From an uncultured Duganella sp. (GTDB lineage Bacteria > Pseudomonadota > Gammaproteobacteria > Burkholderiales > Burkholderiaceae): 49,596 nt of DNA. Of the stretch, positions 33,260 to 39,488 are shown piece by piece; within the stretch, counting starts at the first letter, position 1; every line of letters begins with the position of its first letter. Below the pieces are notes generated by a model that was not told where the DNA came from, ran no database searches, and was given only the letters and a program-made list of their open reading frames with translations. The position numbers were made by a program, and so were the translations under genes. Location: assembly GCA_946482635.1 (NCBI GenBank), contig CAMLSG010000010.1:1-49596 (forward strand). Direction: 5' to 3'.

Positions 33260-34603
33260 ATGACAAGGCAAGTGTTGTGCGTCGCCGCTACAACGGCTGC
33301 GCTGCCGGCGGCGTTGCTTGCCGCCGACCAAACCTTCGACGTCTGCCATGTGTGCGGCTTGGCCCAGGCAGCGGCGGCCTTGCGCGAACAGCACTTCCCG
33401 GTTGGCTTGCTGGTGCTGGACGACTGGACCGGCCCGCTCACCGAACTCGACCATTTCTTGCGTCGCCACAGCCGCCCGCGCTGGGTAGCGGTGTTCCTGC
33501 CCCAGGCATTGGAGCAGGCGGCCTTCCGGCAACTGATACACGACCACTGTGTCGACTTCCACACCTGGCCGCTGGACGCCGGGCGCCTCAGCCATACACT
33601 GGGACACGCGCTCGGCCTGGCCGCGCTGTCCGAGCTCGGCCATTTGCCGGAAGCGTGCCAGTCCATGCGCCTGACCGGTACCAGCACAGCCATTACGCTG
33701 CTGCGCCAGCAGATACTGAAAGTGGCCGGGGCCGATGCTCCGGTGCTGATCTGGGGCGAAAGCGGTACCGGCAAGGAGCTTGTGGCGCGCGCGATACATG
33801 AGCACTCAGGGCGGCGCGACGGGCCATTCGTGCCCATCAATTGCGGCGCGATCCCGGCCTCGCTGGTGCAATCGGAATTGTTCGGTTACGAGAAGGGCGC
33901 CTTTACCGGCGCTGGTCCCGGCAAATGCGGCTTGATCGAATCGGCCAGCGGCGGCTCGATCTTCCTTGATGAGATCGGCGATTTGCCGCTCGAGCTGCAG
34001 GCCAACCTGCTGCGTTTCCTGCAGGAGAAAACCATTTACCGGGTAGGCGGGACGCGCAGCGTGCCGGTCGATGCGCGCGTGATCGCTGCTTCGCACGTCA
34101 AGCTGGGAGATGCGGTGGAACGCGGACTGTTCCGGGAAGACTTGTTCTACCGGCTCAATGTCCTGACCTTGCAGGTTCCGGCCTTGCGCGAGCGGCGCGA
34201 CGACGTGGTGCCACTCGCGCAGGAGGTTTTCCATAGTTATGCCACCGAGCGTGCGCGTCGGGTGCGCGGCTTCAGCAACGGTGCATTGCGTGCGCTGCGC
34301 GCACATGACTGGCCGGGCAATGTGCGCGAACTATTGAATCGCGTGCGGCGTGCAGCCGTGATGGCCGATGGCGCGCTGATCCAGCCGCACGACCTTGAAC
34401 TCGAGGGCATCGACAGCAGCGTTGCCACCGAAGACCTTGATACCGCGCGCGCCAGCGCCGAACGATTGGCCCTGCAGGGCCGCATTGATGCTGGACACAG
34501 CATTACTTCGGTGGCGCGAGAACTCGGTGTATCGCGCATGACGCTCTACCGCCTGATGGCGAAACACGGCATCCAGCGCCCATCGCGCCGCAGCGAAGAC
34601 TGA
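33260..34603 (+). CDS. VpsR-like sigma-54-dependent activator (bEBP)
   Basis: 447 residues. The N-terminal atypical receiver-like domain (about 1-125, LLVLDDW at 51-57) resembles that of VpsR. The AAA+ domain (about 138-375) has Walker A GESGTGKE (166-173), the sigma-54 contact loop GAFTGA (213-218) and Walker B GGSIFLDEIGD (231-241). The C-terminal Fis-type HTH is SVARELGVSRMTLYRLMAKH. VpsR-type proteins often respond to c-di-GMP and drive matrix genes. A -24/-12 promoter lies 180 bases downstream, so the operon at 34859 is the likely target. AAGGTGA precedes the ATG; an upstream ATG at 33182 is less likely. Confidence 0.92.
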   Translation: MTRQVLCVAATTAALPAALLAADQTFDVCHVCGLAQAAAALREQHFPVGLLVLDDWTGPLTELDHFLRRHSRPRWVAVFLPQALEQAAFRQLIHDHCVDFHTWPLDAGRLSHTLGHALGLAALSELGHLPEACQSMRLTGTSTAITLLRQQILKVAGADAPVLIWGESGTGKELVARAIHEHSGRRDGPFVPINCGAIPASLVQSELFGYEKGAFTGAGPGKCGLIESASGGSIFLDEIGDLPLELQANLLRFLQEKTIYRVGGTRSVPVDARVIAASHVKLGDAVERGLFREDLFYRLNVLTLQVPALRERRDDVVPLAQEVFHSYATERARRVRGFSNGALRALRAHDWPGNVRELLNRVRRAAVMADGALIQPHDLELEGIDSSVATEDLDTARASAERLALQGRIDAGHSITSVARELGVSRMTLYRLMAKHGIQRPSRRSED

Positions 34604-34689
34604 GCTTTCGAACGGCCGCGTAACACCATTGTGACATTGCGATGAAAGCCTTGTCTCCTATGACAGTAGGCAGAGGGCGGGTACAAGCG

Positions 34690-34707
34690 TGTCACAGTTG
34701 CGTGACA
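34690..34707. promoter_or_regulatory. Probable upstream activating site (perfect 6+6 dyad)
   Basis: TGTCAC (34690-34695) and GTGACA (34702-34707) are exact inverted repeats with a six-base spacer. They lie about 76 bases upstream of the -24 element, the usual place for a bEBP enhancer. Related half-sites GTGACA (34631-34636) and TGTC/GACA (34652-34665) lie further upstream. Binding by the 33260 activator is inferred. Confidence 0.5.
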
Positions 34708-34782
34708 AAGCAACCTGCTGGATGCATGCCACTTGCTGCGTTGCCGCATCAAAGTCGAGCAATTTCAACAGCTTAGTGCAGG

Positions 34783-34797
34783 TGGCATCAAGCTTGC
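34783..34797 (+). promoter_or_regulatory. Sigma-54 (-24/-12) promoter of the Fap-like operon
   Basis: TGGCATCAAGCTTGC matches the consensus TGGCAC-N5-TTGC at all but one of the defined positions. GG and GC have exactly the required phase. It lies 62 bases before the start codon at 34859 and directly downstream of a sigma-54 activator gene. Confidence 0.72.
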
Positions 34798-37753: not shown

Positions 37754-37765
37754 GGGAGGGGTAGC

Positions 37766-38185
37766 ATGAAACGAGGAATTAGCGTGGTGGCGGGCTGGCT
37801 GCTGGTGTTGGCAGGGCCCGCCACGGCGCAGGGGCCGCCAGAAGGCTGGGCGCCGGCGCCGGAAGCGCGCCTGGAAGAGGCCCGTGGCGGCTTCGAAAGC
37901 GGCAATGGCTTGCTGGTGGCCTTGGGCGTGGAGCGCATGGTCGAAGTCAACGGCGTGGTGGTGGCCCGCAACCGCGTCGAGCTGGCAGACGTGGCGCGGC
38001 TGGCGAATGCGCCCGACGCTGCCGCGGCGCTGGCGCCGATGCTGGTGCAGAACAATACAAACGGGCAGTTGATCCGCAGCCTGACCACCATCGACCTGAC
38101 GGTCAATGCGCTGTCGACCCTGAAAGGACTGAACCTGGAGGGCAACCTGCGCCAGGCCTTATCGAACGCCATTGTGCCCCGCTAG
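37766..38185 (+). CDS. Second small secreted protein with double-glycine site (Fap-like operon)
   Basis: The 139-residue protein has a signal peptide (about 1-22, ending ATAQG). A short spacer and the segment EARLEEARGG with its Gly pair at 41-42 follow. The C-terminal domain contains VERMVEVNGVVVARN and then APMLVQNNTNGQLIRS (90-105). It has the same length as the 36669 protein and shares the RLExxRGG and QN-x5-L-I motifs with it. GGAGGG lies 7 bases before the ATG. It lies between the C39 peptidase and the outer-membrane protein genes. Likely a substrate of the peptidase. Confidence 0.72.
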   Translation: MKRGISVVAGWLLVLAGPATAQGPPEGWAPAPEARLEEARGGFESGNGLLVALGVERMVEVNGVVVARNRVELADVARLANAPDAAAALAPMLVQNNTNGQLIRSLTTIDLTVNALSTLKGLNLEGNLRQALSNAIVPR

Positions 38186-38195
38186 GGAGGGAACG

Positions 38196-39488
38196 ATGCA
38201 TTCAAAGACATTCGCGGCCGGGATGCTGATCCTTGCCAGCCAGGCAGCGTTGGCGCAGGCCACGCCGGAGCAGCGCAGCAACGCTGAACTGGCGGCGGAG
38301 CTGACTGAGTTGAAGAAAGCGCTGGCCGAACAGCGGGCCCTGCTGGAGGACCTGCGGCGCCAGGTCGCGGAGGAACGCCTGGCCTCCGCGCGCGGCACGG
38401 GTGGTGCTGCTGCCGGTAGCTTCGCTGGCGAGGGCTCCGCGCAGAGCCAGCCGCAGCCCAATGTGCCGCCGCCCGGCGGGTCGGTGCAGCCGGCATTGGC
38501 GGTGGGCCAGCCGCCAAAGCGCGACAGCAAGCCGCCGGAAGTGGCGCCGATCTTTGAAAGCCCGGGGGTGCTGACGGCGCGCGGCAAGCTCGTGCTGGAA
38601 CCGGCATTCCAGTTCGGCTATTCGTCCAGCAATCGCGTCGCCCTGGTGGGCTATACCATCATCCCGGCCTTGCTGATCGGCCTGATCGACGTGCGCGAAG
38701 TGAAGCGCAATACAAGCACGGCGACCTTGAGCGGCCGCTATGGACTGAGCAACCGTACAGAACTCGAACTGCGTCTGCCTTATATCTACCGCTCCGATTC
38801 CACCGTGAGCCGCGAAGTGTTCACCGGCAGCGCAGTCGAAAAAGTGTTTGACGTCAGCGGCCGTGCGCTGGGCGATGTCGAGCTGTCGCTGCGCCACCAG
38901 TTGAACGAAGGCGGCGCGGACAAGCCTTACTACGTAGCGGGCCTGCGTTTCAAAACCCGTACCGGCCGCGATCCGTTTGAGGTGGTGACCGACTGCGTGC
39001 GCCGCTGTATCGGCGAGAACGCGACGGGCACCGGCCTGCCGCTTGAGCTGCCGACCGGGTCGGGCTTCTACGCCTTGCAACCGAGCCTGACCTGGCTGTT
39101 CCCGACCGATCCGGCAGTGCTGTTTGGCAGCGTCAGCTACCTACACAATTTCCAGCGCAAGGACCTCAGCCGCCAGGTGCTTAATGGCGAGCGCGAGCCG
39201 CTGGGGACGGTGAAGCCCGGCGCGGTCATCGGCGTCAATTTCGGCGTCGGCCTGGCGCTGAACGAGAAGGCGTCGCTCAGCTTTGGCTATGACCATAGTT
39301 CGATCGCCCGCACACGGCAGAATGGGGTGCCGGCACCCGGCTCGGTGCGCACTCAATTGGGGACCTTGCTGGTCGGTTTTTCCTACCGCCTGAATCCAAA
39401 GCGGACGGTCAATGTCTCAGTGGGAGCAGGGTTGACGCGCGACACGCCGGACGTGTCCATCATGCTGCGCATACCGACGAGCATGTAG
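38196..39488 (+). CDS. FapF-like outer-membrane protein: coiled coil plus beta-barrel
   Basis: The 430-residue protein has a signal peptide (about 1-21). An N-terminal coiled coil (about 25-64, ELAAELTELKKALAEQRALL) and a Pro/Gly-rich linker (about 65-125) follow. A barrel of about 12 amphipathic strands (130-430) belongs to the outer-membrane 'transporter' type. FapF, the amyloid exporter, has the same order: periplasmic coiled coil, linker, 12-strand barrel. A two-Cys loop (DCVRRCIGEN) is inserted mid-barrel. The ATG at 38196 follows AGGGAGGG. It is the last gene of the operon. Confidence 0.82.
   Translation: MHSKTFAAGMLILASQAALAQATPEQRSNAELAAELTELKKALAEQRALLEDLRRQVAEERLASARGTGGAAAGSFAGEGSAQSQPQPNVPPPGGSVQPALAVGQPPKRDSKPPEVAPIFESPGVLTARGKLVLEPAFQFGYSSSNRVALVGYTIIPALLIGLIDVREVKRNTSTATLSGRYGLSNRTELELRLPYIYRSDSTVSREVFTGSAVEKVFDVSGRALGDVELSLRHQLNEGGADKPYYVAGLRFKTRTGRDPFEVVTDCVRRCIGENATGTGLPLELPTGSGFYALQPSLTWLFPTDPAVLFGSVSYLHNFQRKDLSRQVLNGEREPLGTVKPGAVIGVNFGVGLALNEKASLSFGYDHSSIARTRQNGVPAPGSVRTQLGTLLVGFSYRLNPKRTVNVSVGAGLTRDTPDVSIMLRIPTSM

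What the first reader, a model, noticed from the sequence alone, without database searches (positions are those of the whole stretch)
33260..39488. Candidate undescribed Fap-like secretion system with a glycine-rich fibre protein under sigma-54 control
A VpsR-like sigma-54 activator is followed by a five-gene unit: Gly/Ala-rich secreted protein, small secreted protein, solo periplasmic C39 peptidase, second small secreted protein, and coiled-coil plus barrel outer-membrane protein. C39 peptidase (FapD) and coiled-coil barrel (FapF) are the machine parts of the Pseudomonas functional-amyloid system. The exported proteins here do not look like FapB or FapC, and no FapA or FapE is recognisable. 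I infer a related export system that builds a Gly-rich extracellular matrix or fibre.
Basis: partly seen in the sequence, partly recalled or inferred. Interest (0 to 1): 0.9.

Follow-up and report, generated by a model that had tools for sequence, protein, structure and literature searches.

The report
Fap-like exporter of glycine-rich matrix protein
A soil-type bacterium carries a divergent relative of the Pseudomonas amyloid-export machine, apparently switched on through sigma-54, that most likely carries a long glycine-rich protein to the cell surface; it looks like a distinct, so far undescribed variant of a known kind of system and offers a testable clue to what the machine's protease cuts.

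Summary
In detail: a VpsR-like sigma-54 activator, then five tightly packed genes (Gly/Ala-rich secreted protein, small secreted protein, periplasmic C39 peptidase, second small secreted protein, coiled-coil/barrel protein). The barrel matches FapF in sequence and fold; the C39 matches FapD. In 52 relatives whose contigs reach the activator the unit recurs (51 with all five genes searched by BLAST; Gly-rich gene intact in 50), with a sigma-54 promoter in 47 and a palindromic upstream site. It is not a standard Fap operon: FapC and FapE models find nothing in 41 of 42 genomes that carry it (the 42nd also has Fap), and C39 and barrel trees place it outside true Fap. New points: (1) both small proteins, and the barrel linker where present, carry an LxxxRGG / LxxxRGxG double-glycine-type leader, a likely C39 cut site; 11 of 11 FapE-position proteins carry [LM]xxxRG[RK]. 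(2) The Gly-rich protein and small protein 1 end in a shared ~38-residue Q/N module, repeated in tandem in distant relatives. (3) The long passenger is interchangeable: Gly-rich here, Asn/Ser-rich elsewhere. Fibre formation, cleavage and export are inferred. Sigma-54 control of fap and FapD-FapF pairs outside Fap are already published.

The parts
33260..34603 (+). VpsR-like sigma-54 activator (447 aa)
   Evidence: Pfam VpsR E 1.4e-15, Sigma54_activat E 1.4e-66; upstream of the unit in the 52 loci whose contig reaches that far
34690..34707 (.). Palindrome TGTCAC-N6-GTGACA, candidate activator-binding site
   Evidence: Within 2 mismatches of the 12 arm bases in 45 of 48 upstream regions (47 loci plus window), mean 0.1 per mononucleotide-shuffled set
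34783..34797 (+). Sigma-54 (-24/-12) promoter TGGCATCAAGCTTGC
   Evidence: TGGCAY-N5-YTGC in 47 of 52 loci, 0.38 expected from dinucleotide shuffles
34859..36655 (+). Gly/Ala-rich secreted protein, 598 aa (34% Gly, 24% Ala), signal peptide, conserved C-terminal Q/N module
   Evidence: module pattern in 50 of 50 intact orthologues
36669..37088 (+). Small secreted protein 1, LxxxRGG leader plus the same C-terminal module
37085..37753 (+). Periplasmic C39 peptidase, FapD-like (C52, H136, D152)
   Evidence: catalytic Cys motif in 74 of 74 relatives
37766..38185 (+). Small secreted protein 2, LxxxRGGF leader, FapE position
   Evidence: Leader in 71 of 74 including the window; leader block matches FapE
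38196..39488 (+). FapF-like outer-membrane barrel with N-terminal coiled coil and LxxxRGxG linker
39486..39523 (+). Stable hairpin after the last gene
   Evidence: -19.1 kcal/mol, z -5.0; no U run follows, so a terminator role is uncertain

Best explanation
A Fap-like export-and-assembly unit. The VpsR-like activator (perhaps c-di-GMP-responsive) binds the TGTCAC-N6-GTGACA site and opens the sigma-54 promoter. The Gly-rich protein, the two small proteins, the C39 peptidase and the barrel cross the inner membrane by Sec. The C39 peptidase cuts at LxxxRG-G in the two small proteins, and at LxxxRGxG in the linker between the barrel's coiled coil and its plug, which matures the helpers and frees the pore. 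The Gly-rich protein leaves through the FapF-like barrel. Outside, its C-terminal Q/N module docks on, or is nucleated by, the like module of small protein 1 (the role that FapB and CsgB play), giving a surface fibre or mesh with a Gly-rich coat; small protein 2 plays FapE's anchoring or gating role. Shown by sequence: gene content, order and conservation; promoter and upstream site; homology of C39 and barrel to FapD and FapF; leader motif; shared module. Inferred: cleavage, export route, fibre, trimer, c-di-GMP response.
For: Barrel and C39 homology; PTG invariant in 20 of 20 aligned barrels, a motif noted as conserved in FapF (PMC5557850, passages). Synteny in 80 loci; a FapD-like C39 within 5 kb of the barrel in 38 of 38 genomes with a strong barrel match (some of these genomes are also among the 80 loci). 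Sigma-54 site 47 of 52, palindrome 45 of 48. LxxxRGG in 54 of 75 and 71 of 74 small proteins against 0.12 and 0.38 expected from composition (the proteins are related, so counts are not independent). LxxxRGxG in 50 of 52 barrels with at least 80 residues ahead of the plug and 0 of 19 with fewer; 3 more with it could not be placed and 6 loci are cut. Shared module: Gly-rich C-terminus versus small protein 1, score 35.2, 0 of 60 column shuffles as good. FapD's active-site Cys is needed for FapC secretion (PMC5557850, passages), and FapD is thought to process FapE and the periplasmic part of FapF (PMC12822426, passage).
Against: No experiment. The Gly-rich protein gives no folded model (mean pLDDT 36). 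Its module does not match FapB/C repeats (25 of 60 shuffles as good; 28 of 59). Nineteen barrels lack coiled coil and linker motif, the strict linker motif is found in only 1 of 13 Fap-scored barrels and 1 of 9 distant relatives, and 21 of 75 first small proteins lack the strict LxxxRGG; so a cut at exactly this site cannot be universal. Beyond the leader block small protein 2 does not match FapE (17 of 59 shuffles as good).
Confidence: 0.75

Rival explanations
1. It is simply a diverged fapBCDEF operon: Gly-rich = FapC, small protein 1 = FapB, small protein 2 = FapE, amyloid in the strict sense.
For: Collinear order (fibre proteins, C39, small secreted protein, barrel); leader block shared with FapE; the best NCBIfam hit of the two repeat-only relatives is FapB, though not significant (E 0.081 and 0.023); a short stretch of small protein 1's module resembles Fap repeats (13-15 columns, 0 of 60 shuffles as good, probability 15%); six of 13 Fap-scored loci also have a -24/-12 pattern upstream of the first secreted frame.
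Against: FapC and FapE models hit 0 of 41 genomes that have the system but hit G017, which has both systems; barrel and C39 trees put true Fap in its own group (100/98 and 99/97); relatives' module versus Fap repeat is only borderline (1 of 60 shuffles as good).
Confidence: 0.3
2. The Gly-rich protein is not a fibre subunit but a secreted or surface-tethered matrix or adhesin protein; the C-terminal module is an export or anchoring signal recognised by the barrel, and small protein 1 competes for or primes that site.
For: The two ends are conserved while the middle changes freely in length and make-up; weak period-3 pattern of Gly (autocorrelation 0.22, sd 0.05).
Against: In L134 and L138 the module itself occurs 4 times and makes up much of the protein, as expected of a fibre core rather than a signal.
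Confidence: 0.25
3. The barrel is a COG4313-type uptake channel and the C39 serves a bacteriocin; their neighbourhood is accidental.
For: The fold also resembles COG4313 channel 4rl8 (E 2.7e-9).
Against: FapF is closer by fold and sequence; co-occurrence is near total; this C39 is a solo 222-residue protein, not fused to an ABC exporter.
Confidence: 0.03

Closest known systems
Fap (functional amyloid in Pseudomonas), fapABCDEF
   Same: Periplasmic C39 peptidase, FapF-type barrel with coiled coil, Sec-exported substrates, order fibre protein - C39 - small secreted protein - barrel; sigma-54 promoter and enhancer-binding activator (PMC9207406 and PMC13101488, passages, for P. fluorescens)
   Different: No FapA seen, no FapB/C repeats by model, FapE only by a leader block; separate clade for both C39 and barrel; Gly-rich or Asn/Ser-rich passenger; an extra LxxxRGG small protein ahead of the C39
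Acinetobacter Fil (putative pilus system, as named in NCBIfam)
   Same: C39 FilB (131 bits) and barrel FilC (55 bits) are related
   Different: Far below the family cut-offs (475 and 630); none of the six proteins hit another Fil model
Curli (csg)
   Same: Idea of a major subunit and a nucleator that share a Q/N-rich repeat (recalled; see also PMC12822426, passage)
   Different: No curlin-repeat or CsgG Pfam hit among the ten window proteins scanned, nor in the six proteins
C39-type double-glycine leader processing (type I secretion)
   Same: GG-type leader and C39 catalytic residues; canonical C39 peptidases cut at GG (PMC5557850, passages)
   Different: Leader stands behind a Sec signal peptide and the peptidase is a solo periplasmic protein

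Membership tests
Fap | C39 peptidase FapD with catalytic residues | tested here: met
   FapD model E 4.2e-40 but 137 bits against a cut-off of 330; catalytic Cys motif in 74 of 74 relatives; H136, D152 in at least 97% of 75 rows
Fap | FapF barrel: fold, PTG motif, coiled coil | tested here: met
   151 bits against an equivalog cut-off of 700
Fap | FapF is a trimer with a plug | not testable with these tools
   Only a monomer was modelled
Fap | FapB/FapC imperfect repeats | tested here: not met
   NCBIfam: no hit for the Gly-rich protein; FapC model 0 of 41 genomes, positive in G017; module vs Fap repeats not significant, 25 of 60 shuffles as good
Fap | FapE | tested here: inconclusive
   FapE model 0 of 41 genomes, positive in G017; leader block matches, 0 of 59 shuffles; remainder does not, 17 of 59
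Fap | FapA | tested here: not met
   No room for a gene between promoter and Gly-rich gene; small proteins hit no NCBIfam model (whether that library holds a FapA model was not checked). FapA is also often absent in true Fap (PMC3792158, passages)
Fap | Barrel and C39 group with true Fap in trees | tested here: not met
   Window's clade 100/99 in both trees; Fap 100/98 (barrel) and 99/97 (C39)
Fap | Exported protein forms amyloid fibres | not testable with these tools
   Needs experiment
Fil (Acinetobacter) | FilB and FilC above family cut-off | tested here: not met
   131 of 475 bits and 55 of 630 bits
Curli | Curlin repeat (Pfam) | tested here: not met
   No hit in the window's proteins or in small protein 1 and five relatives' long secreted proteins

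The most novel reading that the evidence does not exclude
A second lineage of FapD/FapF-type secretion, parallel to Fap, with a plug-in design: one conserved ~38-residue Q/N module that assembles the fibre, attached to an interchangeable low-complexity passenger (Gly-rich, Asn/Ser-rich or none), and a common post-Sec double-glycine leader (LxxxRG) by which one periplasmic C39 peptidase matures the nucleator, the FapE-like protein and, in this family, the pore's own linker. The like leader in FapE would name FapD's cut site there.
Probability: 0.45. Interest if true: 0.75.

Novelty: new variant of a known kind. Interest (0 to 1): 0.6.

Why it matters
The Fap protease's substrate and cut site are not settled (PMC5557850 calls the target unclear; a December 2025 article says FapD is thought to process FapE and FapF, PMC12822426). 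This system gives a precise shared motif to test, in soil-type bacteria. It also shows a natural series of secreted proteins that keep a C-terminal module and swap the passenger, which bears on biofilm matrices and on engineering fibres. Many of the barrels with a public name are labelled 'acetate kinase', which hides the family.

Tried and rejected
Structure prediction of the Gly-rich protein, hoping for polyglycine-II bundles: mean pLDDT 36, nothing to interpret. Module against FapC C-termini and Fap repeats: not significant for the window's family, borderline for relatives (8 modules caught by my pattern), and only 13-15 columns at low probability for small protein 1. Mature part of small protein 2 against FapE: not significant. 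An early whole-length comparison of the two small proteins gave 98.6% probability but included signal peptides, so I do not rely on it. A shared linker motif in true FapF: strict pattern in 1 of 13, so I no longer extend that point to Fap. One search's 'gly' column used a start one base off and is ignored. In some searches start codons were picked by a crude signal-peptide score, which shortened some rows (it hid Cys52 in six C39 rows and put two barrels in the short class); one search repeats the Cys and linker counts on whole open frames. A first module pattern was too narrow (24 of 50); the wider one found 50 of 50. L026 and L079 were left out of the Gly-rich counts, so 50 of 52. L147 and L152 were left out of the barrel tree; loci without a C39 are absent from the C39 tree. 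L141 scored 111 bits for FapF but falls outside the window's clade. Paper searches for FapF/FapD, Fil, fap operon in Betaproteobacteria, Massilia, double-glycine and FapE, 'fap-like', FapD/FapE since 2019, Oxalobacteraceae amyloid and fapA/FleQ/RpoN showed no description of this unit in their listings; supplements were not read.
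Full report
What is there. Six genes on the + strand: activator 33260-34603, then Gly-rich protein 34859-36655, small protein 1 36669-37088, C39 peptidase 37085-37753, small protein 2 37766-38185 and barrel 38196-39488. The five genes are nearly contiguous. A stable hairpin follows, without a U run. Named close homologues of the barrel are from Duganella, Pseudoduganella and Massilia; no whole genome is held for the window.

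Machine parts. The barrel's best NCBIfam hit is FapF (151 bits, E 4.1e-44, equivalog cut-off 700) with FilC second; the C39's is FapD (137 bits, E 4.2e-40, cut-off 330) with FilB second. By sequence the only strong structures for the barrel are FapF crystals (E 4e-33). The AlphaFold2 model (mean pLDDT 64) has an N-terminal helix (28-65), a low-confidence linker and a strand-rich barrel domain; its 18 best matches are all FapF (best E 1.4e-17, TM by target 0.75), the next is a COG4313 channel. PTG is invariant in 20 of 20 aligned barrels.

Conservation of the unit. A scan of one genome per species gave 256 confirmed relatives, of which the best 80 were fetched. Six contigs are cut at the barrel. 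Of the other 74, all have small protein 1 and a C39, 73 have small protein 2, and 52 reach the activator (the other 22 contigs end before it); 51 of those 52 have all five genes searched by BLAST. The Gly-rich frame is intact in 50 of the 52. L067 lacks small protein 2 and has a shortened C39. In L071 activator, small proteins and C39 lie on the other strand from the barrel. In an even draw of 195 genomes of the same family, 54 have a match at E 0.001 or better and, by my count of the table, 38 a strong one, E below 1e-150. In those 38 a FapD-like C39 lies within 5 kb of the barrel in 38 of 38, on the same strand in 31. These genomes overlap in part with the 80 loci.

Control. In 52 loci with both activator and small protein 1, a strict -24/-12 site lies between activator and Gly-rich gene in 47, against 0.38 expected; in 42 of the 47 it starts 73-101 bases before the start codon I assigned. 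A palindrome TGTCAC-N6-GTGACA lies upstream within two mismatches in 45 of 48 regions (47 loci plus the window), against 0.1 per shuffled set. Sigma-54 control is not unique: the same pattern lies upstream of the first secreted frame in 6 of 13 Fap-scored loci (45-163 bases in five, 455 in L120, no chance estimate made), and fap of P. fluorescens PF07 has an RpoN promoter and needs the activator BrfA, reported to sense c-di-GMP (abstract and passages of PMC9207406, and PMC13101488).

Not a standard Fap operon. With the FapF model I searched 274 genomes of the class; 49 have a match. Thirteen places score 307-456 bits, and the window's clade 132-171 bits (10 places, G001 among them); L141 at 111 bits falls outside the clade. 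Loci L119-L131 served as Fap controls: 11 of 13 have a C39 nearby, and the three proteins tested (FapE of L119 and L125, FapC of L125) match the FapE and FapC models, below the curated cut-offs. Trees of 49 barrels and 48 C39s both give a clade of the window's family plus distant relatives (100/99) and a separate Fap group (100/98, 99/97); some deeper long branches are unsure. FapC and FapE models hit 0 of 41 genomes carrying the system, and do hit the 42nd, G017, which carries both systems.

A shared leader. Both small proteins have, behind the signal peptide, LxxxRGG: 54 of 75 and 71 of 74 including the window, against 0.12 and 0.38 expected from composition. The rows are related, so these are not independent events. 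In the distant relatives 5 of 6 second small proteins have it, and 4 of 7 first ones fit a looser form. The barrel has LxxxRGxG between coiled coil and plug in 53 of 74 uncut loci: 50 of 52 when at least 80 residues precede the plug, 0 of 19 when fewer do, and 3 that could not be placed. FapE-position proteins of Fap loci have [LM]xxxRG[RK]: 11 of 11 that I picked by position, 0.1 expected. The strict linker motif is found in only 1 of 13 Fap-scored barrels and 1 of 9 distant relatives, so it belongs to the window's family. The leader block of small protein 2 aligns with FapE over 33 columns (score 30.6, best shuffle 16.4, 0 of 59), while the remainder does not (17 of 59). In other C39/barrel loci small proteins carry leaders such as MNEAQMDKITAG behind the signal peptide (L141, L148, L150). 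I read these as double-glycine-type sites for the periplasmic C39; that is inference from the known specificity of C39 peptidases. Published work supports FapD catalysis as essential and FapE and the FapF linker as likely targets (PMC5557850, passages; PMC12822426, passage).

A shared module and a swappable passenger. All 50 intact Gly-rich orthologues (320-827 aa, 23-36% Gly) end in a Q/N module, and 75 of 75 first small proteins end in a QNsGaNVlIQ pattern. The two align (score 35.2, 0 of 60 shuffles). In distant relatives the module occurs 4 times in one protein (L134, L138), or sits behind Asn/Ser-rich repeats (L135, L139, L140), and it aligns with the window family's module (score 44.0, 0 of 60). 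So the Gly-rich stretch is one passenger among several. Similarity of the module to Fap repeats is borderline for the relatives (1 of 60), absent for the window's family (25 of 60), and limited to 13 columns for small protein 1 (0 of 60, probability 15%).

What is known already. FapD and FapF homologues side by side were noted in five additional phyla (PMC6173800, section 6 read), and FapD and FapF were described as likely parts of larger families (PMC3792158, passages). A word search of the main texts of these two papers does not find Massilia, Duganella, Janthinobacterium or Herbaspirillum; supplements were not read. The listings of my ten paper searches showed no description of this unit.

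Verdict. A real, conserved, Fap-like export unit with strong sequence evidence for sigma-54 control; distinct from Fap; new variant of a known kind. That it builds a fibre or matrix with the Gly-rich protein is the best explanation but unproven.

Noticed in passing
homologues of window 38196-39488: Most of the NCBI-named FapF-like barrels of Massilia, Duganella and Pseudoduganella listed are called 'acetate kinase', evidently a mislabel.
   Followed up: no
L142, L143, L144 (same genomes as L001, L004, L011): A second C39 plus ~335-residue barrel pair with secreted proteins behind it (533-537 residues in L142 and L144, 177-181 residues in all three); a third kind of C39/barrel system, far from Fap and from the window's family in both trees.
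   Followed up: partly
L136 and L125 (G017): One genome carries both a true Fap operon and a Gly-rich unit of the window's kind, about 89 kb apart on one contig.
   Followed up: partly
L060 and L064: Two tandem Gly-rich genes, each with its own -24/-12 site.
   Followed up: no
L007/L009, L010/L015, L020/L025, L028/L038: Several genomes carry two loci of the system.
   Followed up: no
L086/L146: A barrel copy with no C39 hit in the 12.9 kb fetched around it.
   Followed up: no
loci: Of the 74 loci that extend beyond the barrel, 22 have contigs that end before the activator, many probably within the Gly-rich gene, whose repeats may break assemblies.
   Followed up: no
window 32247-32570 (+): A urease beta-subunit-like protein (Pfam E 8e-34); none of the other nine window proteins scanned is a urease subunit.
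   Followed up: no
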